From NCBI GenBank assembly GCA_034620365.1, contig JAQGEQ010000071.1, positions 2,108,001-2,172,000 of the forward strand: DNA of 64,000 nt. Direction: 5' to 3'. Positions 1,355 through 63,000 of this stretch are shown in pieces. A model generated the notes under the pieces. The model saw only the letters and a program-made list of their open reading frames with translations, searched no databases and had not been told where the DNA came from. Both the position numbers and the translations under genes were made by a program. Origin of the DNA: Pegea sp. RAD2-039. Taxonomy: Eukaryota; Chordata; Thaliacea; Salpida; Salpidae. Within the stretch, counting starts at the first letter, position 1. Every line of letters begins with the position of its first letter.

Positions 1355-3467
1355 ATGTTACAGATGTGTATAGTGGGTGATGAGAAACCTTTAAAAGAGT
1401 TTGAAAAAATTCTTCCTGAAACTCCAAATAAAGGACTTATAGTGAAGGTCAGATGTTAGATTTTCTAAGTTCAAAATTAATTTGATTTTTCTAGACTGAA
1501 TTTGCCGGAGTTTGTCATTCAGATGTCAATCAATGGCACAACTCAATAGATACAGGAAAAGGAATCAGGAAGTTTACAGATAATCCATTTTACAACTTCC
1601 CAATATGCCCAGGACATGAAATTTCAGGGATAGTTCACAGTCTCGGAAAAGATGTTGATAAAAGTGAGAGCACCTGAAAATTTAAACTCCTAAAACGTTC
1701 TTCATCTAGCAATATGCAAATTGAAAACTGGGGATCGAGTCATTGTATATCCTTGGATTGGATGCGATGATTGTTGCTATTGTGAAAGTGATGAAAGACA
1801 TCTTTGTTCAAATCGTCATCATGGACTTGGTATTGGTACACCTGGCGGGTTTGTAATCTTCTACATCCTTCAAAATGACTAATTTGTATATTTGATTAGA
1901 TACTCAACTCATGTGGTTGTCAATAATTCTAAATATGCTCTGAAAGTTCCTGAAAACGTCCCTCTAGACGTCGCTTGTATGTTACCTTGTTCTGGTCTCA
2001 CTACTTTCAATGCAGTTCAAACTTTGCTGCCTTCAATCACAAAAATAACAAAACAGAAAGGTGGTACCCTACATAGCGTCATGATGACGTCATAAACGCT
2101 TCTTTCTACAGGTTTTGCGTCAGTGCTTATCGTGGGAGCCGGAGGTTTGGGTCTTTGGTGTGTTCAATTAGCCAGACACGTGTTTCCATCAACCACTAAA
2201 ATCGTTGTTGCTGATATCTCAGTCAGTTGATGACATCATCGTAATTTGTAATAACGTCATCATTTTTTTTAGGAAAAGAGCTTAGAGCAGGCAAAGATGA
2301 GAGGAGCGGATGATACTTTCCTTGCAATAGGATCAGATGAAGATGAATTAAAGAAAGAAATGAAGAGTCGATCTTTGGATAACGGATTTGACGGAGTTAT
2401 TGATCTTGTTGGTAACTCCAAAACAGCTGAAAGAAGTTTTGGTGTCACACACCGGGTTTGTAAATAAGTTTCTAGTGATTTGATTGATTGATTACAAGGA
2501 GGTTTCTTTTTCTCACAAACTTACTTCAAGCTTATGAAAAGCTCCCCGAATATTTGTTTAAAACTTTTAGGTATTCATTTAAAAAATATTATATAACATA
2601 TATATGATTATTTCTTAATATATTATATATTTAGTACGAAAAACATATAAAAGTACAATTTAATAATATTTATAAATTGTTTTGTATAAACAATTTATGT
2701 TTTTAAAAATTCAAAATTTTCAAATCAAGAATGTTACTGAAAGCTATTTTAGTTAATTATTGATTTAACTATTACAAGAACTTTTATCAAAAATTATATT
2801 TTAACAGCAATTTATTTCAAGTATATATAAAGTAGAAACCAAACAGAAATATTTGTGATAAAAACATGCAAAACTCTGAACCAATTTAGCCAATTTAGAA
2901 CCTTACTCAGTCAAACTTCTGCACCAATCAAGTTAAACGATTTTTCTTGAAAACAAATCTTAAGTTATTATCAAAAGTGTTGAGGACTCACATGCAACTT
3001 GACTCTTCTATTGCTTTTAAGAATGATTATTTCAAGAAACATTTGAAGTATACAACTGAATAATTTAAAATATTTCAAAAGCTTAAAAGCGTTGTTTAGG
3101 TAGATAAAAAATATATAAAAAGTAATTTTCTAGTGATGTGATTGGTTAATTTGTCGATGTAGGGATCTCATATTATCATGGTGGGTCTTTATGGAGGAGC
3201 TGCTTCTTTTCCACTAATCGACTTTGTACATGGAGTTCGAACTGTGCAAGGATCTTTAACTGGATCCTTACAACAACTGATTCAGTTGTTAGAACTCTGT
3301 GCAAAGCATGAAGTGAGTTTGAAGGATTTAACTGGATTTTTTTTGTAAACATTCTTTTGCAGCTTCTTCCGCCTCCTTTAAAGAAGTACCAATTAAAAGA
3401 AGCGTATGACGTCATGATGAAGGTAGAAAATCGACAAGTCACTGGAAGATGTTTGTTGAAGTGTTGA
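1355..3467 (+). CDS. Zinc-dependent medium-chain alcohol dehydrogenase, 8 exons
   Basis: Exons are 1355-1447, 1495-1663, 1710-1848, 1900-2060, 2112-2221, 2273-2455, 3163-3312 and 3363-3467, giving 369 residues, a normal length for the family. The catalytic-zinc motif GVCHSD lies at residues 36-41 and the GHE motif at 71-73. The four structural-zinc cysteines are at 106, 109, 112 and 120 with the classic C-x2-C-x2-C-x7-C spacing. The Rossmann fingerprint GAGGLG is at 196-201. Family members oxidise alcohols, or reduce aldehydes and ketones, with NAD(P) in the cytosol; the substrate cannot be read from sequence. The start is the first ATG in frame with the first conserved block. Intron 4 and the last coding exon each contain the palindrome TGACGTCA. 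Intron 6, about 700 bp, is AT-rich and featureless. Confidence 0.93.
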
Positions 3468-5662: not shown

Positions 5663-8595
5663 ATGTGGGAGACTAATGAAGATCCAAATGAAGAGACAAT
5701 CAAATGTGTGGTTGTTGGTGACAATAATGTTGGAAAAACCAGATTAATATGCTCAAGAGCTTATAATGAAATTGCCCCTAACAAAAGGTAAACTAGTTTT
5801 ACATTTTAACTGTTTTCTAAGTAAAAATTACTTTCTTTTTTTAGATGTATGACTAACTCTTGTCATGTGCCTACAGTCTGGGCAATAGACCAATATCGAA
5901 TGGATAAAGAAGTTTGTTTTATTGAAATATCTTCATAATAATCAATCTTATGGAGTGTTTATAAAATAAATATTTACTTAATCCATTTGTTTTGATTTAG
6001 GTTTTGAAGAATGCAAGATGTAACATTGATGGTGTTGATGTGTCTTTGAGACTTTGGGATACTTTTGGTGATCATCATAAGAACAGAAAGTTTGCTTTTG
6101 GAAAGTAAGACATTTTGACTTTTTACTAAACTGGCATCTGACTATTTGAAAAGTAATTTTAAACTTCTTATAAATGTTTGATGATGTCAAAATAAGATTA
6201 CAACATTAAAAATGAATAAATTTCATTTTTCAAATTGTTTGTTGTCAGAGATGAAATATTACAATTCACTAACCTGTCCATAAAAATTGTCCACTAATTT
6301 ATCTACTTGTCTTTTAGGGCTGATGTGGCCATCATCTGCTTTTCTGTCAGTGACCGTAACTCACTAACCCACGTCATCAATTTTTGGGAGCCAGAAGTCC
6401 GAAAACATTGTCGAAATATCCCGATAATTCTCGTTGCTTGCAAAATCGATTTGCGATTTATTCAAATGAGCAAAATTCGAAGAAATAAAGGAACTCTAAT
6501 CAGGTAAATACCCGAATACAAAAAGCTATTTCTCTTGTGACGTCACTCACGCCTAAACTTATTGACAACTTAAATCAGTTCAAATATTGATCGAAAATTT
6601 CGGATAAAACCCTCAAAATTGAACTAACATCATGAGACGCGTTTAATGACGTCACGACATCGCGTTTACACGCTTCAATTTCTCAGCGAAATTTATTTCA
6701 CTTTTTTTCTTTTTTTGCTCAAAACTTTTGAAAATCAAATCACCTCCTTGTGACATCATCACCAGCTGAAGCGACATCATCAATTTTATCCATTTTCAGA
6801 CCTTTCAGATCAGAAGATGCGATTTTTCCTGAGGAGTGTGCAGTGACAGCACGACGTCTGAATTGTAGTTATTATGAGACGAGTGTCTTCTTAGGATTTG
6901 GAGTTGATGAAGTCTTCATCAATTGTTGTAGAGCTGCTCTTATCTACAGGTGATGATCAAATTTTTATCAATTACTCTTCCAATGACGTCATTTCATTTC
7001 TTATCACTACATTTGCTTGTTTGATGACGTCATTCCGCGTGACCGATTGTCTCGTTTTGCGTCATATTTTGTGATTAATTAAACGAATAAAAGCCAAAAA
7101 TTTTATAAAAAAATCCTAAAAAAAGTTTAAATATGATTTCAGCTCCAGAAAAGTCCCGAATTTGATCTTAGAAATCAAAAATGTTTTTTTTTTACTCTTT
7201 AGAAGGAATATTTCAGTTTGGGTTTCAAATTCAGCGATGAAAAAAGTGAAGAAACCTGAATTTCAACGACCTTTGGAGCCACCAAAACCACCTGCTGTTG
7301 TCATGACAACCAACAACAATAATGACGTTACCAAATCATCTCATTTGCATAATCTGATGTCACTTTACAACTCTTCATCTCTTCATGATATCAACTTCAT
7401 CTGTGATGATGTTAGTTGATCATGTATATTGTGATGACGTCATAATCATGTTTTTGATGACGTAGGAAAAATGTGTTCGCGCTCATCGGACTATCTTATC
7501 TGTGTCTTCGGATTTCTTCCTTCAACTTATACTTGAACAGCGGGAAGTGTTTGAGATCAAGAGAGCTTCAAGAATCGATGACGTCATCATGATCCACCAA
7601 ATCCAATCACAAAATTCAATCCTGAGCTTTTCAATCAATTTGAATTTTGATCTTTTCGAACCTCTCGTCCGTTTCTGTTACTCTGGGATCGAACCGGAAG
7701 ATTTTAAAGACTTTTCGACCTTCGCGAGTTATTTCGGAGTGATGACGTCACATTTTGAAGAAGAGCGCGCTTCTAGAATTTCTCGTTTGTTACTGAAACA
7801 GCGATTGTTTGCTGACGTCATCTTTATTGTCGACGATGGTACTGTCATGGCCCACAAGTTACTTCTCGCTGCTGGCTGTGACGTCATGAACGCGATGTTC
7901 ACTGGAAGTTTTGTTGAAAGTTCTCACAATGAAGTGAATCTTCCCGAGACGACTGAAGCGGTTCTTAATGACGTCATCGGTTTTTTATACACGGGAAACT
8001 TGTTGAGATCTTCCTTTCCGGTTGGAGGACTTCTTCAGATCGCAGATCGTTTGTGTCTTCCTCATTTTACCTCACTTCTCGGTGAGTTTTGATGTAAAAG
8101 AGAAAAAGTTTTATTTTTTTTGTATTTTTTTTAGAATTGGAAATTGTTAAGATGTTTGAGAGTCAGGAAAAAGAGTTTTTAAATGATTCAAATTTGTTGA
8201 GTCAATTATTAGAAGATGTAGTTTCTGTTTTGATGTTATCTCAAATTCATAATGCTGAAAATTTGGTGAAATGGTCTTTGAGGTTTCTTTGTATCCACTA
8301 CAATCAAGTTTGTCGAAGTATTCCTAAGATGTTTAAGGTTTGAAAAGATATTTTTAGTTTTAAAAGATATTTTAATCATTAATCTTCTTCAAGTTCTTCA
8401 TTTGATTTTTTAAATGTTAATTTTATCTCATAGATGCTGCCTCCTTCAATCCAGCTGTTTCTTCAGCAGCAAAGATGGCCTCCTGTTTGGTACATCAAGC
8501 AAAAAGATGTTTATGATAAGGCTCTGTACCTCAAGCAGAAGCAGGAAGTTACAACTCAGCTAAGCAACAACAAAAGTAAAAAGAACAAGAAATAA
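5663..8595 (+). CDS. RHOBTB: RhoBTB: atypical Rho GTPase with two BTB domains
   Basis: Nine exons: 5663-5787, 5845-5911, 6001-6104, 6318-6503, 6800-6949, 7203-7410, 7466-8081, 8135-8337 and 8434-8595, giving 606 residues. The GTPase-like domain (about 1-215) has P-loop GDNNVGKT and the RhoBTB-type switch II DTFGDHH in place of the usual DTAGQ, so it is probably not a classical cycling GTPase. [12 protein letters not shown] is also characteristic. A proline-rich linker (PLEPPKPP) precedes a first, loosely conserved BTB and a second canonical BTB ([23 protein letters not shown]). The tail carries RWPPVWY, a RhoBTB hallmark. Family members act as adaptors for CUL3 ubiquitin ligases. Vertebrate proteins are longer, near 700 residues, mainly in the linker and BTB1 insert. 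TGACGTCA occurs several times in exon 7 and in flanking introns. Confidence 0.97.
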
Positions 8596-9680: not shown

Positions 9681-11803
9681 TTAAGATACTACAGGCCAAG
9701 TTAACGACCAGTTTTCAAACGTTTGTAGATTATCAGAAGGATCTGAAATTGTTTTAAAAGTTGCTGAAACCATTAAAGGAAAATCCAACGTGGAGTCCTC
9801 ATCTGGAAATCAAACAAATTAAAATCGTGTCGATGACGTCATAATCATATCGAATTACCTCCAAGTTTTAAAACTAATCGTTCTTCATCTTTAGAAAAAG
9901 TTTGAAACTTTGATTTTGTATCAAAATGATGAATCACGTGACCTCTATGGTCCAATGAAAACACTCGTAAATGATAAATGATACTTCGTTTGCTTACCAT
10001 ACCAACAGAAGATACACAATGATGTGATTCGACATTTCGTTTCAACATTAAAGAACGTGGCGACTTTAAAAGAAATGATGACGTCACTACCACTTCGATG
10101 ACGTCACCAAAACTTCACAATTACCTTTGAATTATATGAAATAAGCAGATCAACTCCAAAATTATATCCATTCCATCTCCAACAATGATCAACATCACAA
10201 AGTATCTGTCTTCCACATCTCAGACTTTTTACATCAAAACAATCTCCATCATTCGGACCTCTATCATTTCCTTGTTCAACTTTTAACATTTCTAACCAGC
10301 GTTGACGATAAATGGGAATAATCCAATTTAAAGGAATGATTCCATCTACTTCGATCTATAAAAGATGATGATTAGAAGATGTTTATGTCTTTTTAACAAT
10401 CATCAAAGATCTGATGTATGCGATTGTTTACTTATTTGTATTTCAATTCAGAGAAATCATTTAATAAAATTTAAAATCAAAATATTATTAGTGAAGAAAT
10501 ACCAGAAAGATAAAACTGAGAAAATATTCACTTCTCTGCAACAAGCATAATCTCTGACAATATTACAAATTCTAACTGCTCTGAAAACTTCCACAAAGTC
10601 TTTCCCTTCATCACTTTCCAGAAATTTTTTTTGATTTTTTCCATATTTGCTACGAAAATAATTGACAATTTCTTTTGAGAGATTTTTTGAATCACCAGAT
10701 TCTGGTTTATCAACAAGTCGAAAGAAAACCCATTTTCGTAGCATTGTGTAAACATCCATTTCAACTTGGACAACAAACATATTTGGTGAATTAAGGATAC
10801 GACACATTAAAACCGGATCAATATCAATATGATGTCCCTTATTAGATTGAATCATCAAATTATTCTCAAGCCATTCAACACAAATTTTTTCGACATTTTT
10901 TTGCCCATACAATCTGGCGCTTTCATAAAAATCCCAGACATTTTTACTACATACGGATTCAACCATCACCTAAAATAAGATTTGTAAAATGCCTGGAAAT
11001 ATGTTTAGAGTTTGATACCTCTGCACAGTTCTGCATTAAACCCTCTAATTGAATTAAGGATGCTGCAGCTAGGATTGATTTTGCTTCTTCCGGTAAAACT
11101 TCAATATCATCAGTATATAAGAAACCAAAAGCTGTATTTAGAGCTTTTTCATTTACGTTTTTGTCAGGTATCCACAACTTTATATACTGAAAAATAATTT
11201 AAATAAAAACTGTGTTGATAAATTTAATAATTTTTATGCAAAAATTCCGATAAACTTATGTTATATGTCAAAAGAAATAAAAGATTCCACAGTTATTAAA
11301 TCATAAAATAGAGATAATTTTAGAACCAGGTATTTTTATTATCTTATAAAATCGAATTAGGAACATTAGAAAGTTTATAAACAAACAAAATCGCGACAGA
11401 TGAGTATCATTAACAACACCAAGCCATGAAAACTTGCTTTTACTAAACTGTTTATAGTTTATAAGAATTTTAAATGATTTATTTTTCTATAAACAGACAT
11501 TTGTGAAAATACCTTTTGATTACTTTCTTTCCACTGACCATCAAACATTTTGCTAAAAAATTCAGCTTGCTTCAAGTAGACTTTATGTAGTTTCCACTGT
11601 TTATCAAAAGCTTCAACTACAATGTCACTACCTTCACCGGATACAAATAGAGCATCATAAATATATTGAGATGTGCTTTTACTTCTTCTTCTTCTTTTAA
11701 AAAGTAAATCTTGACTATTTTTACTATCTTCATCTTCTACGAATGGTCTTTTTATATTCTTTGAGTTTTTAGTTTTCGTATGACTTGAAAAATGGTTTCC
11801 CAT
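9681..11803 (-). CDS. GMCL1: Germ cell-less homologue (BTB protein)
   Basis: Six exons in transcript order: 11803-11513, 11186-11019, 10969-10532, 10355-10125, 10063-9859 and 9802-9681, giving 484 residues against about 515 in vertebrate GMCL1. The N-terminus MGNHFSS fits an N-myristoylation signal, as expected for a nuclear-envelope-associated protein. A basic stretch KRRRRSK and then STSQYIYDALF lead into the BTB domain (about 55-150). The middle exons carry WLENNLM and FVVQVEMDVYTMLRKW, conserved in the family. The C-terminal exons carry LRCGRQI and CWRWNGYNFGVDLL. Family members are CUL3 substrate adaptors first known from Drosophila germ-cell formation. Two introns near the 3' end are about 55-60 bp and contain TGACGTCA. 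The exon 5 acceptor, ending in AAAG, was chosen because it is the only nearby site that keeps frame. Confidence 0.95.
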
Positions 11804-13678: not shown

Positions 13679-14576
13679 CAAGTCAGTTGCAAATCTAAAT
13701 TTTTTAAACTTAACATGTGCTTAATAATTTGCTTTACATGTGGACATTATGGGCTTCGGTATTTTGGATTGAGATTTTGACTAATTTCACGATTTTGCTG
13801 CAATATTTTCAGCTTCTCAAATATCTAAATATACTTCAAAATTTTTCTTAACCACAAAGAACATCTCTGAGATAAAAAAAGTTCTTCAATTATTCAACTT
13901 GAAGCTAATTTAGAAACTTTAAATTAAATAGCTGAAAGCTTCAGTAATTTTATCATCAGCAAAATAATCAAAGCATGACGTCATCAAAAGTGACCACATA
14001 AATTAAAGCCATCAACAATCTCAGAAACATAAAACACGTTTTGAAGATTTGTCTCAAAAATTTTCTTAATTTTCGGCTACTAGACAAGTAGCCTTCAAAA
14101 TTTCAGAAAAACCACCCACAGGTTTTTCACATTCTTTATTTCAAGGTTTCATTTCTTGTTTATATCCACACCCTTCAATTTACTATTTGTGGGTTCTGAT
14201 CGTAACTTTGATCTTTTTACTTTCAATTTGTTATCTTCATCATCTGATTTTACCACTTTCTTTACCACATCACTTTCTAATCTTCATAATTTTCTGATTC
14301 TCATAACTTCCTGATAATTTTTTCAATTTATTATCTTTATCATTAAAAGACAATTTGATTGAAAAACTTAACTAAGTAATTTAGTGAGGTGCAAATTTTC
14401 TAAACCAATGTTATGATATTGAAAGTTGGAAATCTTTTTGTTTTTTAGCAAACTTTTGGGTTTTGACTATTTGTAGGATTCAAAGTAGCTAACTACCAAA
14501 TAAGGTAAACTGAAAAATCAAAAATATGATGAACTGAAATTAAACTGAAAAAATTAAATAAAATAAGACACATGCT
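13679..14576. other. Non-coding stretch before the minisatellite
   Basis: One TGACGTCA lies near 13978. There is pyrimidine-rich sequence at 14100-14340 but no supported gene. Confidence 0.4.
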
Positions 14577-15747
14577 GATGAAGATCAAGAATGATGAGGA
14601 TCAAGAATGATGAGATCAAGAATGATGAGGATCAAGAATGATGAGGATCAAGAATGATGAGGATCAAGAATGATGAGGATCAAGAATGATGAGGATCAAG
14701 AATGATGAAGATCAAGAATGATGAAGATCAAGAATGATGAGGATCAAGAATGATGAAGATCAAGAATGATGAGGATCAAGAATGATGAGGATCAGGAATG
14801 ATGAGGATCAAGAATGATGAGGATCAAGAATGATGAGGATCAAGAATGATGAGGATCAAGAATGATGAGGATCAAGAATGATGAAGATCAAGAATGATGA
14901 GGATCAAGAATGATGAGGATCAAGAATGATGAGGATCAAGAATGATGAGGATCAAGAATGATGAGGATCAAGAATGATGAGGATCAAGAATGATGAAGAT
15001 CAAGAATGATGAGGATCAAGAATGATGAGGATCAAGAATGATGAGGGATCAAGAATGATGAGGATCAAGAATGATGAGGATCAAGAATGATGAGGATCAA
15101 GAATGATGAAGATCAAGAATGATGAGGATCAAGAATGATGAGGATCAAGAATGATGAGGGATCAAGAATGATGAGGATCAAGAATGATGAGGATCAAGAA
15201 TGATGAGGATCAAGAATGATGAGGATCAAGAATGATGAAGATCAAGAATGATGAGGATCAAGAATGATGAGGATCAAGAATGATGAGGGATCAAGAATGA
15301 TGAGGATCAAGAATGATGAGGATCAAGAATGATGAGGATCAAGAATGATGAAGATCAAGAATGATGAGGATCAGGAATGATGAAGATCAAGAATGATGAG
15401 GATCAAGAATGATGAGGATCAAGAATGATGAGGATCAAGAATGATGAGGATCAGGAATGATGAAGATCAAGAATGATGAAGATCAAGAATGATGAAGATC
15501 AAGAATGATGAAGATCAAGAATGATGAAGATCAAGAATGATGAGGATCAAGAATGATGAGGATCAAGAATGATGAGGATCAAGAATGATGAGGATCAGGA
15601 ATGATGAGGATCAGGAATGATGAGGATCAAGAATGATGAGGATCAAGAATGATGAAGATCAAGAATGATGAAGATCAAGAATGATGAGGATCAGGAATGA
15701 TGAGGATCAAGAATGATGAGGATCAAGAATGATGAGGATTAGGAATG
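14577..15747. repeat. Minisatellite, 16-bp unit, about 73 copies
   Basis: The unit is GATCAAGAATGATGAG, repeated head to tail for about 1.17 kb. Frequent variants are GATGAAGATC, ATCAGGAATG and one-base expansions (GAGGGATC). Because 16 is not a multiple of 3 it does not form a long open frame. It lies just beyond the 3' end of tankyrase. Its reverse complement, GATCCTCATCATTCTT, resembles the 14-bp units in the RIM introns. Confidence 0.98.
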
Positions 15748-15919: not shown

Positions 15920-18900
15920 TCAGCTTGGTTTCACTATTTGATACACAATCAAATATTCAGGATAAGCCTGTCGAGAAGAAAATTGTAGCGAATCGATGAC
16001 AGAAGACTTCATTTACCTGTTCACCGCGATATATGACGTACTCAGCATGACACAAACCACCAACACTTGGTCTTCCGATCACTGAATGATGAGCTGGAGG
16101 TGAATGAGACATTTTAATTGCACTAAATTGAACAAATGATTTTCCTAAACAACAAATCAATTTATTGGTTTTTTGGTGAAGATGCTTTTAGTGGAACCTA
16201 ATGTAACCCTGCAGAAGAGAAGTTGGCGGTGACAGATGTAACAAGATCGATCTTTATGAAGAGGACATCCTGATCCACCGTTAATCCCGTAAACATATTG
16301 ATTACTTTTTGATGAATCTTCAGCAAAATAAATTCCAGCTCCAAACATGCCACCGATACATGCATGACGTTCGTCGAAACCTAAACATGTCATGATGACG
16401 TCATCACATCTTATATTGTTACTTAGCAACCTTTTTGTACGATTGAATTAACAAATGGAGAACCGTGAAACAGCATTCGATCGTTACTATGGTGATGATT
16501 CTCTTCACTAACTTCGCGTCTTCGATGATTCCATCTCTCTCGAAGTCGTTTATTTACTACTCGTTGTACCTGAAGTTGTGACGTCAGCAACATCGTGATG
16601 ACGTCATCATTTCACCTTGATAATTTTATATGATTGAAATACACCACCAGTTGAACCTCCATCTTTATGTTCACGGATCGTTGAACTCATCTCTTCGACT
16701 ACAGCTTTATAATCATCATCATCAGAAGATAAGTCAATTAAAATCGACCCTGATTGCGTCATTCTACAAAACAATGACGTCATCACCGCCAGAAGTAGAT
16801 GATGGTTACCTCGGATATGGGACTTGATCAACTTGGCCATCAGCAGCACATAATGCAAACCGTTCAGCAACTTTTAAGATTCGATGTCTATCACCAAAAG
16901 CCTCGATTCCAATTTCTTTTAGTTGGTTGTGATCCATTTCACAAAGTACCTCGAATGTGATTCGTTCTTTACTGAATAAATCGCGGTAACAACTCAACTT
17001 CAATCGATCTAACATTTCCAAAACTTCACAACCTGCTACTGATGACGTCATCAATACACGCGTGTGCAGTGAAGCAGAACAAACCTCGTTCGCTATTAGT
17101 AGCAAGTGGAAACACTGACTTGGTAGCAACAGCTTCGTCACTACGCGTCGCTTCGATTTGGTTGCTTAGCGACGGAACAGACATTTGTTGTAGTAATAGC
17201 GGTGTTGCATCGATCAATAAACTTTTAATGTCATCTTGAGTCGTTAAATCGAAAGCTGTTTGTCCTTCCTAACAACAAATCGGTTGCTAAGAGCGTTCAT
17301 GACGTAATCATCATCTTCAAAACCTGATTCTTCATTAACGGATCAGCTCCGTGAGATAACAGCAAAGTACAAAGTTGTGTTCTTCCTTTTTGACAAGCTT
17401 CGTGAAGCGGTGTAAAAGCCCAGCGATCAGTCGCGTTTACAAGCGCTTTATTTTTAATTAACAAAGACGCGATATCCACATGACCATATGATGACGCATT
17501 GTGTAGCGGAATCAAGCCGCCTTTATCTTGCGCGTTTACGTCTGCTCCTCTTCCAATCAAATATTCAGCTACCTGTCGATGACGTCATAGAATCATCGAA
17601 TGATGACATCATAAGAAAATTGACAACGAGAATGTTTTTTAGCTTGGCAACATTTAAATATAAAGCCCGCCGAGTTTTATAGAACTATTCGATGTTTAAA
17701 AGAATCCTTGTGACGTTTTACAATGATCAAAAAAATTTAATGATGACGTCACGATATTTAATGATGACGTCACTAAATTTTAGATACAATAAAGTTTGCG
17801 AATTTGGTGGTATTTAGAAGCTACAAAGCCGAAAGTTTATTATAAAACAAGATAGAATGATAAAAAGCAAATGACGTCATACAAATATCAAATGATGACG
17901 TCACAAACCTCAAAATTGTTGTAACCAGATGCTAGATGAAGGGGCGTCGAATTACGCCCTTGTTGATCCCTACAATTGATATTTTCATGAGTACAAAGCT
18001 TCTGAACACGCGCTAAACATCCTTTTTTTGCTGCATCCAACAACGCCGCGTCACCGCGTAATAAATCCTGATGACGTCATCATAACTTGATGATCATGTG
18101 ATAGAATCATCAGCTCACTTGTATATCAGTATCTGATTCTTTAACAAGATCCAACGCGGTATTTCCATCGCGATTTCGCTTGCCACAATCGGCGCCATTT
18201 TTCAGAAGTAATTTGCAAATTTCGTATTTTCCTTTTGCTGCAGCTTCGTGTAAGGGAGTAAATTTCCAAATGTCTGTCACATTGACAGCTGCTCCGTGTT
18301 TCACCAACAATTCAGCCACCTAAAGATGCTTGATGACGTCATCATCACCATGACAACACATCTAATACCTCGTAGTGACCATAAGAGCAAGCGTTGTGTA
18401 AGGGTACAAGACCACCTTTGTCTTTAGCATGTACGTCAGCACAATGATTAATCAAATATTCGACGACTGAAACACGGTTGTAGCCCGCCGCAAAGTGTAA
18501 TGGCGTCGATAAACGACCTTCAATATCGCGGCAATTCACGTTTTGTGTTGTACAAAATTTTTTGACAAGGGCTAAGTCACCAGATTTGGCGGCTTCTAAA
18601 AGCTGAAAAGCGGGAAATTATTTTTGAAAAGCTCGATGTTTGAAACAAACTTGTATTTCAATATCTGTTGTCGTGTTTGAACTTTCAACTTGTAGTTGAT
18701 TGTCAGATGGTCTTGAAGCACTTTCTATCGATTCCTATGACGTCAGTATCGGCGTTAAACACAATTTAAGTTTTTCAAAAGGATTATACTGACATGTAAC
18801 ATTTGTTGAATATTTTCTGATGCTAATTGAAGAGTTGTAAAACCTTGAAGAGATATTAAAGTAGGATCTGCTCCATGTGCCAACAAAATTTGACAAACCT

Positions 18901-21257
18901 ACAAAATATCTTCTAAATATCTCTCCATTAAATGATGCAATTTACTTGATTTAAACCATTTTTTGCAGCTCTGTGTAACGCAGTTTGACCGTGACAATCA
19001 GCACTTGAGATATTTGCTCCGTTTTTTAATAACAACTCCAACACATCAACATGACCTTTGTCTGCTGCTACGTGCAAAGGACTCAAAAACTCTTTGTTCT
19101 TCGCATTTATATTGATATCTTTACGGATTAGTAACTCCGTGACCTAAAGTAAATACGAAAAAATCAACATCTGAAGATCAACATCCGAAAATCAACATCT
19201 GAAGATCAACATTTGAAGATCAACATCTGAAGGTCAACATTTGAAGATCAACATCTGAAGATCAACATCTGAAGATCAACATCCGAAAATCAACATCTAA
19301 AGATCAACATTTGAAGATCAACATCCGAAGATCAACATCTGAAGATCAACATCTGAAGATCAACATCCGAAAATCAACATCTGAAGATCAACATCTGAAG
19401 AGCGATATTGTTTTCTAGAAACCTGTTTTCTTTTCGGATGAGGTGAGGCGACTGAACAATGAAGCGCGTTATCAAGCGTGAAAGGATGAATAAAATTGAT
19501 GACGTCACTGGAAAGAAACTTCTTCAGCTTAGTGACGTCAGACTGACGTGCCGAATCCAGCAATGAATGTCCACGAAACTCGTAACTAAGCTTCTCCTGT
19601 AAATGCCTAACAACCAACATTCAAATGATGACGTCATCTGTGGGAAATCACCTGTTCTGAGCGACGTCACAAGCGGTTTTGGAGTGACAGTTGATGATGT
19701 AAGGATCGCCACCATGAGTCAGCAACAAAGTACAAACTTCAACCCGGTTTTTAGACGATGCTTCATGTAAGGGAGTAAATTGCCATAAATCAAGTGCGTT
19801 GACGTTTGCTCCGTGTTTCACCAACAATTCAGCCACCTAAAGATGCTTGATGACGTCATCATCACCATGACAACACATCTAATACCTCGTAGTGACCATA
19901 AGAGCAAGCATTGTGTAAGGGTACAAGACCACCTTTGTCTTTAGCATGTACGTCAGCGCCTTGTTGAAGTAGAAGAGATACTATACGAGTCTAAAAGAAA
20001 AAGATCAGGAGCTGATTAGGATCAGAAAGTGATGAGGATCAGAAAGTGATTAGGACCAGAAAGTGATGAGGATCAGGGTACTTACTCGATTGTAGCCAGC
20101 TGCTAGGTGTAGTGGCGTGGATTTTCTACCGTCTGAGGCGTGACAATTGACATTTAAAGGTGTCAATAACTTCATCATTTGTTCCTCATTTCCACTTCGA
20201 GCTACTTCTAGAAGCTCTTCTTTCTTGTAATCACCAGAAAGAACAATCTGTCAAAGATCAAGAGCTGAAGGTTGGAGATCAAGGGGAAGGAATCAATCTT
20301 ACTTTGACGGATGCTTCAGCAACATCAAACGCGGTTTTATTATCCGAATTACAAATAGAGACATCAGCTTTACTTTGCAACAAAACAATACAAACATCAA
20401 CTTTTCCTTTAATAGCAGCTTCATGTAAAGGAGTAAAGTTCCAATTATCTTGTGAATTAGGATCAGCACCAGCATTTAGTAGTAACTACAACAAACGAGA
20501 TAAACTACAAATTGATAAATTTCTATTCAAAACTCACCAATACTACTTCTGCATGTCCAAATGAACAAGCATTATGTAAAGGAATTAGACCTCCATCATC
20601 TTTTGCATGAACATTTGCACCACATTGTAGTAAATGTTCAACAACATCTTTCCGACCAAAACCAGCAGCAAAATGGAGGGGACTGCTTTTACGACCTTCT
20701 AAATCACGCGCGTTAACATTCTTTGAATTCACACAGAGTTTCACCTAAGAACACAAAATTACGTGATTAGCACAAGATTGCTATGTAGTCCCGTGGTTGC
20801 TATGTAGTCACATGGTTGCTATATAGTCCCGTAATTGCGGTAGTTAGGTGGTTGCTATGCAGTTAGGCGGTTGCTATGTAGTCACTTGGTTGCTATGTAG
20901 TCATGTGGCTGATATGTAGTAACGTGGTTGCTATGCAGTCACGTGGTCACTATATAGTCACGTAGTTGCTATGTAGTTTGATGGTTGCTCTTTAGTTAGG
21001 CAGTTACTATGCAGTCACGTGGTTGCTAAGTAGTTAGATGGTTGCTATGCAGTTAAACGGGTGGCTATGTAGTCACGTGATTGCTATGTGGTTAGGTGGT
21101 TGCTATGTAGTCACGTAGTTGCTATGTAGTTACCTAGTTGCTATATTACCTTAGTGAGATCGCCGTTTCTGCAAGCATCAAATAAATCTCTTTGAGATGA
21201 ACTTGATAATTCATTAAGAAGATTCGATCCTGATAAGGTTCTTCTTCTAGATGACAT
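15920..21257 (-). CDS. TNKS: Tankyrase (ankyrin-SAM-PARP poly-ADP-ribosyltransferase)
   Basis: Twenty-one exons: 21257-21150, 20744-20538, 20485-20303, 20247-20086, 19990-19886, 19836-19652, 19606-19423, 19143-18946, 18898-18794, 18734-18651, 18602-18369, 18319-18119, 18067-17909, 17572-17324, 17268-17085, 17032-16810, 16763-16616, 16569-16431, 16380-16198, 16144-16017 and 15967-15920. The product is 1138 residues, close to vertebrate TNKS2 (1166). Five ankyrin clusters (about 20-850; repeated TPLHEAA and [10 protein letters not shown]) bind target peptides. A SAM domain (about 865-930) allows polymerisation. The PARP domain (from about 945) has the H-Y-E triad at H1008 (LFHGSP), Y1037 (GIYFAE) and E1122 (YRGEQ), plus zinc ligands C1058, H1061, C1066 and C1069. 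The vertebrate TNKS1 His/Pro/Ser-rich N-terminus is absent. Known roles include Axin turnover and telomere and spindle regulation. Most introns are 45-60 bp and carry TGACGTCA. Confidence 0.98.
18291..18440. repeat. 150-bp near-identical block, copy 1 (within tankyrase)
   Basis: It spans the end of exon 11, the 49-bp intron and the start of exon 12. I see one mismatch to the block at 19808-19957. It encodes equivalent parts of two ankyrin clusters. Confidence 0.93.
19162..19402. repeat. Intronic minisatellite, 14-bp unit
   Basis: The unit GATCAACATCTGAA is repeated about 17 times with C/T and G/A variants. It lies in tankyrase intron 7, between exons 7 and 8. Its reverse complement begins GATC and contains a TTCAGATG core, similar to other minisatellites in the window. 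Confidence 0.95.
19808..19957. repeat. 150-bp near-identical block, copy 2 (within tankyrase)
   Basis: It spans part of exon 5, the 49-bp intron and the start of exon 6, and matches 18291-18440 except for one base. The flanking exon sequence diverges at once on both sides. Confidence 0.93.
20002..20077. repeat. Short intronic tandem repeat, about 17-bp unit
   Basis: About four copies of GAGGATCAGAAAGTGAT lie in tankyrase intron 4. The unit resembles the 16-bp minisatellite downstream of the gene. Confidence 0.8.
20776..21145. repeat. Degenerate tandem repeat in tankyrase intron 1
   Basis: Imperfect copies of a roughly 19-20-bp unit, GTTGCTATGTAGTCACGTG, fill most of the first intron. Units vary in length and sequence, so the array looks older than the 16-bp minisatellite. 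Confidence 0.9.
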
Positions 21258-23289: not shown

Positions 23290-23657
23290 TTTATTAAACC
23301 TGCTGAAAATCCTATTAAATAATTAAATTTATTTTGAATTTAAATGAAGTACGAATTTCTCATAATTTCAATATTTAAATTTTTTATAATTATATTTTAT
23401 ATAGAAAAATTATTTACTATAAAAATAAAATAAATCATTTACTATATAATTATCACATTTTTGACGTATTATCCAACTTAATGCTTAAAAACATAAAACA
23501 AAAAAGTACAATGTTGAATGTAAATCTGTACAAGATGACAGTAAAAGCTTTTTTCAACATACATAGCAATAGAAGTTATCTGAAAACAAAAAATAAAAAA
23601 ATAACAGTTTAAGCTCATATACAATTGATAACACTGATAATAAACAGGTTGACAATT

Positions 23658-43639: not shown

Positions 43640-46469
43640 TTAAAGTCTTGACTTGGGTGTTTCCCCGAAACTGGTTACCATCTCTAATTCTTCTTGATTT
43701 TTTTTCTTTTCCTTAAAAACTTTACAACAAAGCAAAGAAGTAAAAAAATTATCATAAACTTCCAATGATCTCATCGCCAAGGGTAAAAATTTCCATGTCC
43801 TCATCTTTTTTGGCAACCAATTTGGTTTTTTTTCTTGCATGATGTTAATCACTGCAACTATCACTCCTACAAGAACCCCAAATGCAACCAAACCCACTGC
43901 TACCCATTCACTAATAAATGAGACTCCTAAAAGTATGGCAGGGATGAGAAAGAAGACCACGATGAGGTAGATGACCGCAAACCATCTGTAGTTGGCTGCT
44001 GTTGTCCCTAATTTCTTCGCTCCTGCGATAGGGAGTCTGGTGAAGGGGATCGGATACCATAAAAGGATCCCAGAGATGTTAAAGAATAGATGAACTAAAG
44101 AGATTTGAAGAGCCTCAACAAGTCTTTCTGGATCGGATGCAAGAGCTGCAAGGATTGATGTAGTTGTGGTACCAATGTTTGATCCAAGAGTCAACGGATA
44201 CATCCGGTCTAGTCCGATAATTCCCATTCCTACTAGAGGTGTGATTGTTGAAGTGAAAACGGAACTGCTTTGAACCAGAAACGTCAGGCCCGCTCCTGCT
44301 ACCATCGCTAAGTAACCTACAACAAAAAGTTGGAAGATAAAAAGATCTTCTAAACAAAAAAAAGTTTTTGACTTGAGAGAAAGTCATCAGCATCCAAGGA
44401 TTGTTTGCTTGAGTTTACAAGAATTTTTCTACATCAGTAAGTTTTCTTGGACTGGTTTCTTTTGTAAGGGGATTTTTTTACAAATCAGGCCAATTCGATT
44501 TTTTTATTTGTTTGATTGGATTTAAATCAGGTTATCTAGAACCTCAATCTTAAACTAATATCATTTATAACAATACGATTTTGCATTTGGTGGTTAAGAG
44601 CATATACACTATTAGGCTTTTGTTTATTTGCTAAAGACAGACCTTAGCATCAAATATTTGGGTTTAAGTTTACTTGGTGTGGTTTTTTGGCGATAAGTTT
44701 TTACGAGCAGAAAACAAAATATTTTTTATACTAGATAAAATATATAAAAAGCAGTAAGTAGGCCTAAGTATCTTCAATTACTAAGCGCAAGATTTGTTAG
44801 TAAGCTAATAGAATTTGTAAAAGATAAGATAACATCATATATATATCACAAGTTTCTATAAAGTTGTAAAAGTTGAGAAATTAGTTGATTTGAAGTGAAG
44901 TTGGTAGATGGTTACCTGACACCCATCCAAACGGATAGCGAAAGTTAATGTTGATAATTTTCTTGATTAATTTAGCCACAGTCCCCTTCAAAACTGAACT
45001 TAAAGTCTTGACCAATCCAATCAGACACGAACTGAGAACAATCAAGGATACAAGAAGCAAAATCACTCCCACTACCACATCACTTAAAGATGTATTTGCA
45101 AATAAGAAGTCATTGATATCACCTAGCAACGAGAAGATGACGTTATTTGTGCTGATGACGTCATACAAAACTTACATCTAGAACAAACTTTAATCGTTTG
45201 ATTCACTAATGTCCCATTGATACTATCTGACGTCATCACGTCGTCATAGCCACAACAAATCTACAAAAAATAACTCGATGACGTCACAAACACAAGACAT
45301 AAATACATGACAACTTACAACAATCATGCTTGCTTCAGGCTCCAAACCAGAAGATTCGTTTGCAGCAAGTTCAATCACTGATTTGTTAACTTGAATCACG
45401 TGCTTCACTAGCGGGTCAGTTATTACCTATGATGTCATTGATGATGATGTCCTAATTTCGTAAAGATCACCTTTAAGAAGTCTGGAGCGTCAGAAGAGCT
45501 TTGAATTTCTAAAGGCTTGACAATTGCTGAAGTCAAAGCATCTAGATATCCGCTAACAATCTCAAGAGGAAGAAGAACGAGAACAGAAAGAAGATTGAAG
45601 ATATCGTGAATCGTGGCTCCTGCAAATGCCCTAGCAACAGAAAATAACTACTTATAAATCTTTTACAAAACAAAGATCAAGACTCTCTAAGTGATTTAGC
45701 AAAACCAACTTCTTAAACTGATTCCTGTCCATTGATTGGCTGAGAGCTACAATTGTGTTGGTCACAGAAGTTCCAATATTCGCTCCCATAATAATCGGGA
45801 TTGCTTGCTTGACTTGAATGACTGAAATTGAAATTACCTTCTACAGATTTCAAAGGACTTTTTAAGAAGAAGATCTCACTTCCTGCCGCAACCATGGTGA
45901 TAACAATCGATGTCGAAGTCGATGAACTTTGCACTAGAACGGTTACTAAGATACCAATGATCAAACCAGTAATTGGATTGTTGAGGAAAGAGTCGTTACT
46001 AAAAATTTCGCCAGCCGTCTTCCCAGCTACAAACAATGAAAGATGAAAAGACTCTTTTGAGAGCTCTTTTTTTACTGATTCTTACCAAGAACTTGGAACG
46101 AATCTCCAAGGAGACTTATCGAACAGATGAAAACATAAAGAAATGAAAGCGCCAAAATCACCTTGAAGAGATTTAATAAGATTGTTTTGACTTTTTCCGA
46201 TGTCGTTAATTCAATCCAAGGAGTCGTCTCGACTAAAAATCGCTTTTTGTTTTTTGTTTCTAAATTTTTAATCAAATTTCAAACTTTCTTCATCCCATTT
46301 TATCGCCCATTCATCTAAATTCGAATCTGTGTCTTTCTGATGTAACGATAATCTTGAATCCTGGTCAGAAATGAATCCTGGATTTGGTGTTCCATTCTGT
46401 TCTAAAGAAATAAAATTTCAAATAAAAATTTTCTTAAAACTTTTTTCAACCTATTTTATGTTCTTCCAT
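43640..46469 (-). CDS. SLC34A: Type II sodium-phosphate cotransporter (SLC34 family)
   Basis: Ten exons: 46469-46451, 46401-46285, 46232-46086, 46026-45880, 45821-45710, 45630-45471, 45426-45319, 45260-45176, 45122-44916 and 44316-43640, giving 592 residues against about 640-690 in vertebrates. The family's inverted repeat is clear, with VQSSSTSTS near residue 127 and VQSSSVFTS near 383, the substrate/sodium-binding QSSS motifs, each followed by a GANIGTS/[11 protein letters not shown] segment. Between the halves is an extracellular loop with N-glycosylation sites and cysteines. The C-terminal half ([17 protein letters not shown]) is strongly conserved. It would carry phosphate inward with sodium at the plasma membrane. 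The tail ends KSRL, a class I PDZ ligand like the TRL end of vertebrate NaPi-IIa. The first coding exon has only 19 bases; it was chosen because its ATG, donor and phase all fit. Three short introns carry TGACGTCA. Confidence 0.96.
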
Positions 46470-54649: not shown

Positions 54650-55889
54650 AGCAAAGAAATTTGAAGTTGTAGACTTTTCTGATATTTATCAAACCTTTCC
54701 AAATAGTTTTAATATTTAAAGATTTTAAACTTGAAATTTGAAATTCTGTTTTATTCCATCATTTTTCAACTCAAATTTTCGGTTGTAAAATTCTTTTCTT
54801 TTTCTTTAGAAATCGAACAATTTTAATGAAAAGATGAAATAAGATGGAAAGAATTTCTGCAATGTATCTCTTATTTATTTGCATATAAATTTAGAAGCTT
54901 TTTTTCGTTTGCACTTCATTTACATTTAGTTTAATAACAAATATATTCAAATATTCCCAGATTTTGCAATTGAACTAGAAAATATATTCTTAAATATTAT
55001 TGTCGGAATTCTTTAATATTACGCTCTAATGGTTTTATTTAGAATATATTTTTCGGGGATTTAAACCTTTAGTTAAATTTTCAGAAATTTGTTAAAAAAC
55101 TTTTTATTCTCAAATTTCTTTAATCGATTTTCTAGTATTGAGCAAATCTTCTATATCTCATTCTAGTGAGTGTTTAGTTGATTATCATCTGATGAAGATA
55201 TCTCTTTTAGACTTCTATGACGCTATTTGATTTTTGTTTGAAGTCTTCTAAATTATTTCAACTTTTTAAATAATAATTAAAAACAATTTTCTTGAATCGT
55301 ACAAACTAATCAAGTACAAATTTTAGTTGTAAATATAAAATTGAATACTTCTATAAACATAAAAACTTGAAGTTAAATCTTCGAAATCTTTCAAAGAACT
55401 AATAAGAGAGAAGTAGTTTTGATGACGTCACTTTTTTATCGTTATTTTTTAATGAATAAGAATAACCAGGAAATGGTTTGTATACGATGAAATAACAAAT
55501 GAGTAAAAAAAATAAATCTTTAATTTTCTCAGATGAATTATGCAATCTTTCAAAAAATATTTCACACAAAGTAAAAGTTTGGCTTTCTCCTTGCATAAAG
55601 CTATATAACTGACAAAACTCTTGTGGAAGTCAAAGATAGTTTTCAAAAAGATTTGTTGATCAAATTATTAAAAATACTGAATTTTTGATGTTACTAGCTT
55701 TAACTTTTTTTAAGAATCAATGAAGTACTGTTAGTAATTGAAGTTACAGAATTTTTGTAGGAGGATTAAAAAAGAGCTAAGATTTCTAAACTAGATATCA
55801 ATAAACCAAATAGTTAGTTCTTGGTAACTTTGACGTAAATTAAACACATGCGAAGGAGTGTGCCTGAAATCTTTGGCTAACGAACAAGC
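54650..55889. other. AT-rich intergenic stretch
   Basis: Probable SLC35C1 3' UTR followed by AT-rich DNA. There is a single TGACGTCA near 55422 and no supported gene. Confidence 0.45.
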
Positions 55890-56240
55890 TCAAAAATAGT
55901 ATATCATTATATAAATTAAGTTAGAAATATAGAAAGAAATAGACACAAGGCATTTTAGGAGTTCTTGTGCCATATAGCAGTTAATAATTACATAGAATTT
56001 TAATAAAGTAAAAAAGAGAAAAATAAGTTTAGAAATGACGATTGCAGCAATATTAAAGCGATTCAACTTCTGCTTGAATAACACGAGTGATTTTGATATG
56101 ACAAAGTCTGATGGCAGCTGGTTCCAAGTGTTAATTGTGGTATGAGAAAAAGTTTGCTCTGATTGAAGTACCAGATGGTATGGGCTTATTAAGGTGTAAA
56201 GTGTGTCGTTTAATACATAAAGTAAAATCATAAAAATATA
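55890..56240 (-). mobile_element. 3' fragment of a non-LTR retrotransposon (reverse transcriptase C-terminus)
   Basis: A minus-strand open frame reads FSHTTINTWNQLPSDFV followed by ISKSLVLFKQKLNRF. This is the conserved closing motif of CR1/Jockey-type elements (WN.LP, then a serine-rich gap and FK..L). Only the 3' end survives, as is usual for 5'-truncated insertions. Confidence 0.65.
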
Positions 56241-56399
56241 GTTTTAAAAGCAGTTTCCGAATAAACTATTTCATTTCAAATTTGTCACTCTTGGAATGAC
56301 GATCAGAATTCTGAACTTTCGACTATTCCAATTTTGTTAAAAACTTGTTAGGTTTTACAGATCAAACAATCAAGTGAGAAGACACGTTGAGATTTTCAC

Positions 56400-56515
56400 G
56401 TCGGCATCATAAAAATGAAACTTCTGACGTCAGCAGTAGTGATGTCAGTATACGCGAAAATCATTCATGTAAATGAGTATAGTCATGTGACAAGAATGGT
56501 TCAGTAGCAGACTTG
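56400..56515 (-). repeat. Dispersed non-coding repeat, copy 2
   Basis: The reverse complement of this segment matches 33874-33960 over roughly 80 bp: TTGTCACATGACTATACTCA, then CGCGTATACTGACATCACTA and TGACGTCAGAAG. Protein coding is not apparent. Confidence 0.75.
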
Positions 56516-56765
56516 AAATGTGGTACTTTCTTTTTAATTTAGCAGGAGGTGGAGTTCACAAAATACAATAAAAGTGTAAATCAGTGGTTAAAAAACTTTA
56601 TTTAAAAAAAAAATTGCTTTTTAAGCTTATTTTACGTTTATTACTTTTCATTATATCAAAGAAAATTTTTCTGTTTTGATAAATAATGAAAAGATTAATT
56701 AAGTCATCTCTTCACCAAAAACTCCTCGTCAAACTAAAAACTAAGTAAAATCTCACAGACAAATC

Positions 56766-60003: not shown

Positions 60004-63000
60004 ATGAGCGCTGAAAAGTTGGAAAGTTTAATTGCTAGACTTGAAAAGTCAGTTATAAAACTAGAAAAAGTTGGGGGTGGGAGTGATTCATCTGCATCTG
60101 GAGGTTGTATCAGGAGATTTTTGTTGATTAACATCATTAAGTTTCATTATTTTAGATTCCTTGCCAGCTTCAGTTGCTGCTTATGATGAATTTGTTGAGG
60201 AGTTTTTGAATCCTTATTTTTCAGCTTCTTCTGTTCTTGGTGGAATAATTGATAAACAGGTTTAGTTTTGTTGCTACAAACTTTATTAATTATTTATCAG
60301 ACTTCAAATATTTGTAAACCTTTATTTATTTTTATTGATATTTTTTAGACTTCAAATCTTTTTGAAAAATTTTTCTTCAATAAATTTTATATTTTATTCA
60401 AAATACTTGAAATATCTGAATATAAAAAGAAGTTTAAATATTTTATGAAATATTTTCATTTATATAAACATATTTTTTTTAGATCTAAAATATTAATTTG
60501 ATTTTACAATTGATAAATTTTATTGAAATTTTATTTCTAAATTTCCATCTTTTCACAAACTTTTCAACTTATTTTTATATATTTAAAAATTTTCAACTTT
60601 TGATATTCAGGCAAAACTTTTTCAAGCTGTGTCAACTGAGCACCGTAACTTTCTTCTTTTAGTCGCCAAGCACTCAGAACCATCAGTAAGTTCCCCAAAA
60701 AAGTATCCAAACATCAAACTAATCTCAAACTCTATAAGAAACCAGAAGTTTTCACTGAGCTTCTAAAACCACTAAGTGATGCAATGAGCAAAGTTGGAAC
60801 TCTTCGAGATTTGGACCACAAAAACCACTGCTCAGCTCTTAACGAGGGTACAATGGCGTTTAGCTGGATGGGGTACCCAAAAGCCCCAATGAAGTTTGTC
60901 GAAGGCATCCGGGACTCCGTCAAGTTCTACACTAACAAAGTTTTAGTTGAAACTAAGAACGGGTGAGCTCTTCAGCTCTACCTAGTGGTTAGATGATAAA
61001 ATTGATAAATTTATAGAGATCAGAAAGAAGAGAATCGGAATTGGGTGAAGACTTTCACAGAAGTCTTTACAGGACTCATCTCTTACATCAAAGATCACCA
61101 TCGAACTGGACCCTCATGGAATCTATCTGTAAGTCCTCTTCCTGCGCTTCCTTCTTCTATTCCTCCACCTCCTGTTCTTCCTTCTGATCTTCCTGATCCT
61201 CCTCAATCTTCGATCCTTAATTTTGAAGCGTCTGATCGCGCCAAGCGCGCTTTGATGGAAGATCTCAACCAAGGGGTTGACATCCTAAAGGGTGAGAACC
61301 ACACACGCCCTCAATACGCTTCACATCACTTTTCACCGCTTCTAATGACGTCATCGCTTCACGTGTGTTTCAATCATCACCTTACAGGCTCCTCCAGCAT
61401 CAAAACCATCATCAGGGGTCCCTGCCCCGCCTCCAGGAGTCCCTCCACCCCCACCACCGCCCCCAGCATCTTCAACAGTCTCGAAGAAGTCCCAAGAGCC
61501 AGACGCAATGTCAAAGCTGCTCAGCGAAATTAATCGTGGATGTGACGTCACTAAGGGTTTGCTTCATGAGTGTTGCTACGCCATCACGTCGCGATTTGGT
61601 CTTCATCTTTTCATTTGGGATTTTTTTAGGATTGAGGAAAGTTTCGAACGCTGAGAAGACTCACAAAAACCCCGAGTTGCGAAACCACGCCCCAGTACCT
61701 TTCAAAGCAAAATCGACCACTTACAAGCCAGTTGGGGCACCAAAAAAAGCTTTAAAATTTCCCCCTAAAAAGGTCCTGGAAGATGGAAAGAAATGGGTCG
61801 TGGTAAGTTGAGATTTTGAGGCGTTTTTCAGGTAATTTTGTGTCTTTTCTGTAGGAGTATCAAGAAGGTGCAAGCCTTGTAATTGATGATACAAACATGA
61901 AGCAGGTTGCTTACGTCTACAAATGCAACAACACTACCATCCAGATCAAGGGGAAGATCAATTCTGTGATCTTGGATAGTTGTAAGAAAGTTGGATTAGT
62001 TTTTGAAGCTGTAATCTCTGGATGTGAAGTTGTTAATTGCCAAAGTGTGAAAGTTCAGGTTTGTCTTCAACTCTTTCAAATTTTATATTTATCCATTCGA
62101 CTTTTCATCAAATTTACATTTTTGAAAAATTGTTTTAAATTTCAACTTTGAAAAACTGACAATTTTATTCTTGTTGTTTGAGATCTAATCTTAAAATCTT
62201 TTGATTTGTAGTTTGATTTGAAATCATTTATAGAACACAAAAGTTGAATGAATCTCAATGTATAACTTTCTTTCTTCAAATAGTAATAATTAAAAATATA
62301 TATTAAAATATTATTTTTCTAAATTTGAAAACTGAAATTGTTTGTTTGTAAAAATACGTTTGTAAATATGTTGAAGGTTTTCTGGTTTGTTTCTTCCTCA
62401 AAATGTTTCAATTCTTCAAAATTAAAAGTCTTTTTTGTTTTTTTTTAGTTGATAAACAATTCTAAAAATAAGATTCTAATTTGAAATATTTATTAAGAAA
62501 TAAACAAAAAATATTTGTGAACTTGTTTTGATATAAAGACAAGAATTTTGTGCTGCATTTGCAGTGATCTTGGTTTAAATCTCATGTAGAAAATTTAATT
62601 AACATATGTACTTTTTTAGATAGTAGATAATCTAACTCAACCATACCCTAGTGGTAATTGCTGATAAGTAGATAAATAAAAACTCTATTGAGGGTACAAG
62701 AGCTTGCTTATAGCATCTAATTCTTGGTCTTTGTACCTCTGTGTAGTACAAAATTTAATTGAAATATATATATATTTATAAATATATATTTTTAGTATTT
62801 TCTGGCTCCTAATTGGCTAGTTTCCTGAGTTTTTCTAAACTAATTCACAACTCATCTGTCTATATATAATATATCTATTATTTTGTATATCAATTTCTTT
62901 TATTAAATTTTAATTCTCATCAATTAAAATTGTCCAGGCACAAGGTCAATGCCCAACTGTTTCAATTGATAAAACTGACGGATGTATCGTGTACCTGAGC

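What the first reader, a model, noticed from the sequence alone, without database searches (positions are those of the whole stretch)
2085..61550. Massive over-representation of the palindrome TGACGTCA
By eye I count about 66 exact copies of TGACGTCA in 64 kb. With about 70-72% AT the chance expectation is roughly one or fewer. Most copies sit in the longer palindrome TGATGACGTCATCA or a close variant. They are dense in gene regions (6.5-8, 16-20, 32.9-41.3 and 45.1-45.3 kb) and almost absent from long AT-rich intergenic DNA (about 46-55 kb and 22-28 kb). The octamer is the CREB/ATF site, but this density is far beyond promoter use. It could be a genome-wide signature: a structural or chromatin motif, a protected or methylated CpG palindrome, or the footprint of short insertions.
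Basis: partly seen in the sequence, partly recalled or inferred. Interest (0 to 1): 0.75.

Follow-up and report, generated by a model that had tools for sequence, protein, structure and literature searches.

The report
Animal genome peppered with CRE palindromes
The short mirror-symmetric DNA word TGACGTCA, a docking site for common gene-switch proteins, occurs tens of thousands of times in this unnamed animal's genome, often inside genes and their tiny introns, and where it could be checked it arose letter by letter rather than by inserted DNA.

Summary
The window holds exactly 66 TGACGTCA; motif-masked background predicts about one. It is a genome-wide signature: 27,792 copies in the 105.7-Mb assembly against 969 of the reversed word, and 1,972 TGATGACGTCATCA against 0. 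The word is sharp: its 24 one-letter variants average about 1,550 copies. A second palindrome, TCACGTGA, is also in excess (4,614 against 237). Copies are patchy and gene-linked. In two spliced gene models (tankyrase, adenylate cyclase 9-like; both chosen as motif-rich) 35 copies lie in 3,196 nt of intron and 6 in 4,724 nt of exon. Five coding copies tested lie in gap-free alignments to solved relatives, and motif-bearing tiny introns are not longer than others, so insertion is unlikely. Both words are known transcription-factor sites (CRE, E-box), and the genome encodes CREB-, Jun- and Fos-type bZIP proteins. Best explanation: DNA-level selection for exact bZIP sites through gene territory, at a density otherwise known from the cyanobacterial palindrome HIP1. 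Binding, selection and function are inferred.

The parts
2085..3414 (.). 2 copies (2085, 3407)
6538..7976 (.). 10 copies; 5 of them (7579, 7743, 7813, 7879, 7969) inside one 208-codon open frame with a BTB domain
   Evidence: three (7813, 7879, 7969) lie in a gap-free alignment to Kelch-like protein 22
9834..10106 (.). 3 copies, two in a 20-nt tandem pair
13976..13983 (.). single copy
16001..20300 (-). tankyrase gene (ankyrin, SAM, PARP): 16 introns, 17 copies; 15 in 10 of 16 introns, 2 in exons (19500, 19533)
21636..21643 (.). single copy in a SEFIR open frame
28865..28872 (+). single copy in the carnitine octanoyltransferase-like open frame, read as LMTSL
32904..33330 (.). 4 copies, three in a degenerate 20-nt tandem array
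35134..41246 (+). RIM (regulating synaptic membrane exocytosis)-like gene: 20 copies; 10 of them fall in the open frames listed, as MTS/VTS or DV peptides
   Evidence: PDZ; C2 piece, best match regulating synaptic membrane exocytosis protein 2
45156..45286 (.). 3 copies between two exon pieces of a Na/Pi cotransporter gene
55423..56432 (.). 2 copies
61346..61550 (+). 2 copies in the cyclase-associated protein (CAP) gene region

Best explanation
TGACGTCA is the canonical CRE, the exact palindromic site of CREB/ATF/Jun-type bZIP dimers. In this animal lineage it appears to have been multiplied by point substitution (with some local tandem duplication) across transcribed gene territory: tiny introns first, then 3' flanks, then codons that tolerate Asp-Val or Met-Thr-Ser. 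It is kept as an exact palindrome by selection on DNA, most likely because many redundant bZIP sites act as intragenic enhancers or keep the gene body open. A second factor site, the E-box TCACGTGA, is also in excess at lower numbers. Shown: the excess, its genome-wide extent, its sharpness, its intron bias in two genes, its origin by substitution in the coding copies tested, and the presence of candidate binders. Inferred: binding in the cell, selection, and the gene-body function.
For: Genome-wide 27,792 vs 969 reversed. Twelve one-letter variants total 18,470 on one strand (VGACGTCA 1,532, THACGTCA 4,490, TGBCGTCA 1,913, TGADGTCA 10,535), so the exact word outnumbers the average variant about 18-fold. 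Flanks R..Y (125 of 150) and the 14-mer TGATGACGTCATCA (1,972 vs 0) fit a symmetric dimer. In a tandem-masked set of 267 kb, iterative word masking first removes this word family, the E-box family and partial sites; later words score z below 7. Of the 16 NNACGTNN palindromes only TGACGTCA (150 vs 3.5) and TCACGTGA (22 vs 2.2) stand out clearly. The hybrid TCACGTCA shows no large excess (it is part of THACGTCA, 4,490 vs 4,039 control). 35 copies in 3,196 nt of intron against 6 in 4,724 nt of exon; 22 of 31 introns carry one. The genome has 12 bZIP hits over the Pfam cut-off, among them CREB-type (L020), Jun-type (L019) and Fos-type (L022) basic regions; these subfamily names are by eye.
Against: Copies also sit in coding sequence, where ordinary factor sites are rarely this dense. 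The AP-1 word TGACTCA is not enriched in the window (5 vs 5.9-7.8) although Jun and Fos types are present, so the binder would have to be CRE-specific. Real factor sites usually tolerate variants; here only the fourth-position variants clearly exceed their control. 11 of the 35 intron copies lie in tandem arrays (4 in tankyrase; 7 in the cyclase), leaving 24 outside them. No TSS map, binding data, expression data or related genome was available. The excess is absent from half of the arbitrarily placed 10-kb pieces (7 of 14). The two gene models and the dense loci were chosen because they are motif-rich.
Confidence: 0.45

Rival explanations
1. A HIP1-like iterated palindrome kept by a repair or modification bias: an enzyme that acts at the exact palindrome favours mutations that create it, so copies accumulate without a transcriptional role.
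For: Octamer palindrome, sharp, in coding and non-coding DNA, gained by substitution in the coding copies tested; local density about 1 per 970 nt in the window. PMC4390886 (abstract and part 1 of section 3.4 read) reports HIP1 near one per 1000 nt and proposes methylation-directed mismatch repair as its cause.
Against: HIP1 belongs to cyanobacteria with matching methyltransferases, and no such enzyme was sought here. Here copies cluster in genes and introns, and two palindromes (CRE and E-box), both known animal factor sites, are enriched.
Confidence: 0.2
2. A meiotic recombination or gene-conversion motif like fission-yeast M26 (ATGACGT, bound by Atf1-Pcr1): sites open chromatin in meiosis, raise local GC and breed minisatellites.
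For: Most copies contain ATGACGT on one strand or both (134 of 150 in the tandem-masked set, flank table). Several minisatellites lie in or near the dense blocks. 151 bp at 99.3% identity between two ankyrin units, including a motif-bearing intron, suggests recent conversion. The M26 link and open chromatin are from PMC9775316 (passages read).
Against: A break-inducing motif should be lost by conversion, not gained (general knowledge). The same review says a full CRE inside ade6 was not bound by Atf1-Pcr1 and did not promote recombination. GC and minisatellites may only mark genes.
Confidence: 0.12
3. An RNA-level signal, such as a splicing enhancer, branch-point or hairpin in the tiny introns.
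For: Strong intron bias. In tankyrase short introns 8 of 10 copies start in the 3' half.
Against: In the adenylate cyclase gene positions are spread (starts 10 to 35 in introns of 48-55 nt). Copies also lie in exons and 3' flanks. Fold z-scores of motif-bearing short tankyrase introns run from -2.4 to +0.5 with no common hairpin. Perfect palindromy is a DNA-dimer property.
Confidence: 0.08
4. The footprint of short mobile insertions or introner-like elements.
For: Some copies lie in short tandem arrays; one tandem unit of about 1.3 kb carries the motif (L018).
Against: Gap-free alignment of the five coding copies tested. Short introns with the motif measure 45-59 nt in tankyrase, those without 47-63. 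No shared sequence seen beyond the core and nearest flanks.
Confidence: 0.04

Closest known systems
cAMP response element (CRE), CREB/ATF binding site
   Same: Identical octamer; flanks and 14-mer fit bZIP dimers (that ATF/JDP2/BATF3 matrices resemble the 14-mer is recalled, not from a call); a CREB-type protein is encoded.
   Different: In vertebrates CREs cluster next to transcription starts; a survey found no such bias in sea squirt, fly and worm (PMC1796609, passages). Here copies run through introns, exons and 3' flanks at up to 45 per 9 kb (L033, a chosen dense stretch).
HIP1 (GCGATCGC) of cyanobacteria
   Same: Highly iterated exact palindromic octamer, about one per kb where dense.
   Different: Animal genome, gene-clustered, a known factor site; no cognate methyltransferase was sought.
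M26 recombination hotspot of fission yeast
   Same: Shares the core ATGACGT and a bZIP binder.
   Different: No recombination evidence here; the full CRE was reported inactive at ade6 (PMC9775316, passages).
E-box TCACGTGA (USF/MITF/TFE-type site; factor names recalled)
   Same: The second over-represented palindrome.
   Different: A different factor family; about 6 times fewer copies.

Membership tests
CRE (CREB/ATF site) | exact TGACGTCA | tested here: met
   66 in window; 27,792 genome-wide
CRE (CREB/ATF site) | a CREB/ATF-type bZIP protein in the genome | tested here: met
   L020 basic region and zipper piece; assignment to CREB by eye
CRE (CREB/ATF site) | bound in the cell and acting on transcription | not testable with these tools
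   no ChIP or expression data
CRE (CREB/ATF site) | promoter-proximal position (vertebrate CREs) | tested here: inconclusive
   no TSS map; many copies lie inside gene bodies
HIP1-type iterated palindrome | exact palindrome in great excess over its one-letter variants | tested here: met
HIP1-type iterated palindrome | cyanobacterial genome with cognate methyltransferase | tested here: not met
   animal genes; the methyltransferase itself was not sought
M26 hotspot | ATGACGT heptamer | tested here: met
   ATGACGT 108 vs 17.8 expected in the tandem-masked window
M26 hotspot | raises meiotic recombination | not testable with these tools
   no genetic map
Short insertion / introner element | adds length at the site | tested here: not met
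   gap-free alignments of five coding copies and unchanged short-intron length in tankyrase

The most novel reading that the evidence does not exclude
An animal genome has evolved its own highly iterated palindrome system: a DNA-level pressure, acting through a sequence-reading protein, has driven tens of thousands of exact TGACGTCA (and thousands of TCACGTGA) into gene territory by point substitution, even recoding proteins, to set a gene-body chromatin, germline or repair state.
Probability: 0.3. Interest if true: 0.85.

Novelty: new variant of a known kind. Interest (0 to 1): 0.62.

Why it matters
Factor sites are normally thought of as sparse, degenerate and promoter- or enhancer-bound. 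A genome in which one exact palindrome is written into introns and codons of whole genes would be a natural test of what drives site gain (selection, drive or repair bias), and would give an animal counterpart to the still debated HIP1 palindrome.

Tried and rejected
Helical phasing: in the window 9 pair distances are 20, 21 or 40-42 against 1.2 expected after jitter (0 of 5000 jitters reach 9), but many such pairs are TRF tandem arrays. The 13 neighbour pairs up to 32 nt outside arrays, sorted by eye, show 12, 16, 17, 20, 20, 20, 21, 23, 24, 25, 26, 26, 31, so no phase is claimed.

RNA hairpin and branch-point: rejected as general. Other promoter words (CCAAT, ETS, X-box) in the 267-kb set: at most about 2-fold over expectation except a few rare words (TTGCTAGG 8 vs 2.8, CCTAGCAAC 4 vs 0.5). 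Rfam and tRNA scans of the window: nothing. COX1 search for a mitochondrial contig: none. Protein search for one SEFIR protein: no hit at E 0.001. Xenoturbella bocki unlikely as source, as it has 43% GC (PMC11521371, passages) and the fetched pieces have 21-40%. Haplotype test: the only allelic-looking pair fetched (L029/L030, 99.2% identical over 3,075 bp) has 3 copies in each, too few to test constraint; the global alignment in that script was meaningless because the two lie in opposite orientation, so the BLAST line is used.

Literature: searches (lists capped at 10-25 titles; 11, 25, 52 and 93 matched far more papers than were listed). No listed title or abstract start described a genome-wide TGACGTCA excess in an animal; the papers behind those lists were not read through. 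Papers seen: PMC9775316, PMC1796609 and PMC11521371, passages only; PMC4390886, abstract and part 1 of section 3.4.
Full report
Observation. TGACGTCA occurs exactly 66 times in the window. With tandem arrays and the motif itself masked, a first-order model expects 0.4 and a third-order model 1.1. Only 8 copies are the full TGATGACGTCATCA. Density rises with GC: Spearman 0.51 over 128 half-kb bins, 0 copies in 23 bins under 22% GC, 33 in 27 bins above 37%.

Genome-wide. The window lies in an unnamed 105.7-Mb assembly of 387 contigs. There TGACGTCA occurs 27,792 times; the same letters read backwards occur 969 times. The 14-mer occurs 1,972 times against 0. The one-letter variants, one strand with reversed control in brackets, are: first letter changed 1,532 [2,581], second 4,490 [4,039], third 1,913 [1,669], fourth 10,535 [5,534]. 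Only the fourth position, which includes the CpG decay word TGATGTCA, exceeds its control clearly. The word is therefore very sharp: over both strands the 24 variants average about 1,550 copies. It is also patchy: 14 arbitrarily placed 10-kb pieces hold 14 copies and 7 hold none, while one chosen 9-kb stretch holds 45 (L033).

A second palindrome. After tandem arrays are masked in 267 kb of window and fetched sequence, iterative word counting first finds the TGACGTCA family, a (G/A)TCACGTGA family and partial CRE sites such as ATGACGTA (23 vs 4); the words after that score z below 7 and are mostly low-complexity, minisatellite-like or rare words. Of the 16 NNACGTNN palindromes only TGACGTCA (150 vs 3.5 expected) and TCACGTGA (22 vs 2.2) stand out clearly. 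Genome-wide TCACGTGA occurs 4,614 times against 237. The overlapping composite TGACGTCACGTGA occurs 141 times over both strands against 1; no independence expectation was computed for it. The 267-kb set includes loci chosen for the motif, so its counts show specificity, not unbiased abundance.

Where copies lie. The genes are animal genes: tankyrase, RIM, a BTB protein, two SEFIR proteins, a carnitine octanoyltransferase-like protein and a Na/Pi cotransporter, CAP, and in fetched loci a formin and an adenylate cyclase closest to type 9. Tankyrase has 16 introns, 13 of them 45-63 nt; removing them leaves a continuous frame apart from two stops at the 5' end, upstream of the ankyrin part, and a frame slip after the last intron. 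The adenylate cyclase piece gives a continuous frame to its stop after removal of 15 introns. Together 35 copies lie in 3,196 nt of intron and 6 in 4,724 nt of exon (the tankyrase exon length includes its unresolved ends), and 22 of 31 introns hold at least one. Eleven of the 35 intron copies lie in tandem arrays. Eight further copies follow the cyclase stop codon between L033 4520 and 4839. Both genes were picked because they are motif-rich; the intron-to-exon contrast is within those genes.

How copies arose. In tankyrase the coding copies read SDVT and SDVI inside a 160-residue gap-free alignment with tankyrase-1. In the BTB protein three copies read ADVI, CDVM and NDVI inside a 90-residue gap-free alignment with Kelch-like protein 22. 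Coding copies use the two frames without a stop, as DV or as (M/V)TS. Motif-bearing short introns in tankyrase measure 45-59 nt and motif-free ones 47-63. So these copies came by substitution, not insertion. Tandem duplication then multiplies some: 19-, 20- and 23-nt arrays carry the motif in L033 and 20- to 23-nt units in the window. In tankyrase 3 of 7 Asp-Val pairs are GACGTC although GAC and GTC are minority codons (18 of 57 and 13 of 56), a small sample in a chosen gene.

Mechanism. The word is the canonical CRE. The genome encodes bZIP proteins (12 hits over the cut-off) of which I read five by eye as CREB (L020), Jun (L019), Fos-like (L022), XBP1 (L023) and C/EBP (L024). The symmetric flanks, the need for all eight letters and the presence of a second, unrelated factor palindrome point to protein dimers reading DNA. 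I therefore favour selection for CREB/ATF-type sites through gene bodies (0.45). Against it: coding density, the lack of AP-1 enrichment (TGACTCA 5 vs 5.9-7.8 in the window), near-background variants, patchiness, and no functional data. A HIP1-like repair or modification drive (0.2) and an M26-like recombination role (0.12) remain open. RNA-level roles (0.08) and insertion footprints (0.04) are less likely.

Methylation. CpG observed/expected, motif excluded, is 1.12 in tankyrase exons, 0.76 in its introns, 0.93 in the RIM region, 0.89 in the formin, 0.36 in the SEFIR genes and 0.65 in 13 arbitrarily placed pieces. This fits motif-rich genes being little methylated in the germline, but is indirect, and the tankyrase introns, where most of its copies lie, are close to the window average (0.76).

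Novelty. No paper listed in the searches named under Tried and rejected describes, in title or abstract start, such an excess in an animal; the species is unknown, so an unread genome paper may mention it. The element is a known site; its abundance, exactness and placement make it a new variant of a known kind, nearest in form to HIP1 (PMC4390886, abstract and part of section 3.4).

Noticed in passing
genome-wide; window copies include 9934 and 39926: TCACGTGA is a second palindrome in great excess (4,614 vs 237 reversed).
   Followed up: partly
window 19163-19401, 20013-20076, 14576-15747, 38910-39226, 40108-40282: 14- to 17-nt minisatellites, several in introns. The tankyrase-intron array at 19163-19401 has relatives of 79-91% identity on at least eight other contigs: dispersed minisatellite families.
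   Followed up: no
window 18290-18440 and 19807-19957: 151 bp at 99.3% identity between two ankyrin units of one gene, including an intron: a likely recent gene conversion.
   Followed up: partly
window 21496-25427: Two adjacent SEFIR-domain genes in long uninterrupted frames, with one motif copy between them and low CpG (0.36), unlike the neighbouring intron-rich genes.
   Followed up: no
window 37431-37923: 15-nt minisatellite GCTTCTGTTGCTATG of about 33 copies inside the RIM-like gene region.
   Followed up: no
L018 3721-10000: Tandem array with a unit of about 1.3 kb; four of its units carry the motif in the same place.
   Followed up: no
L029 and L030: Two contigs 99.2% identical in opposite orientation over 3 kb, probably the two haplotypes.
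   Followed up: partly
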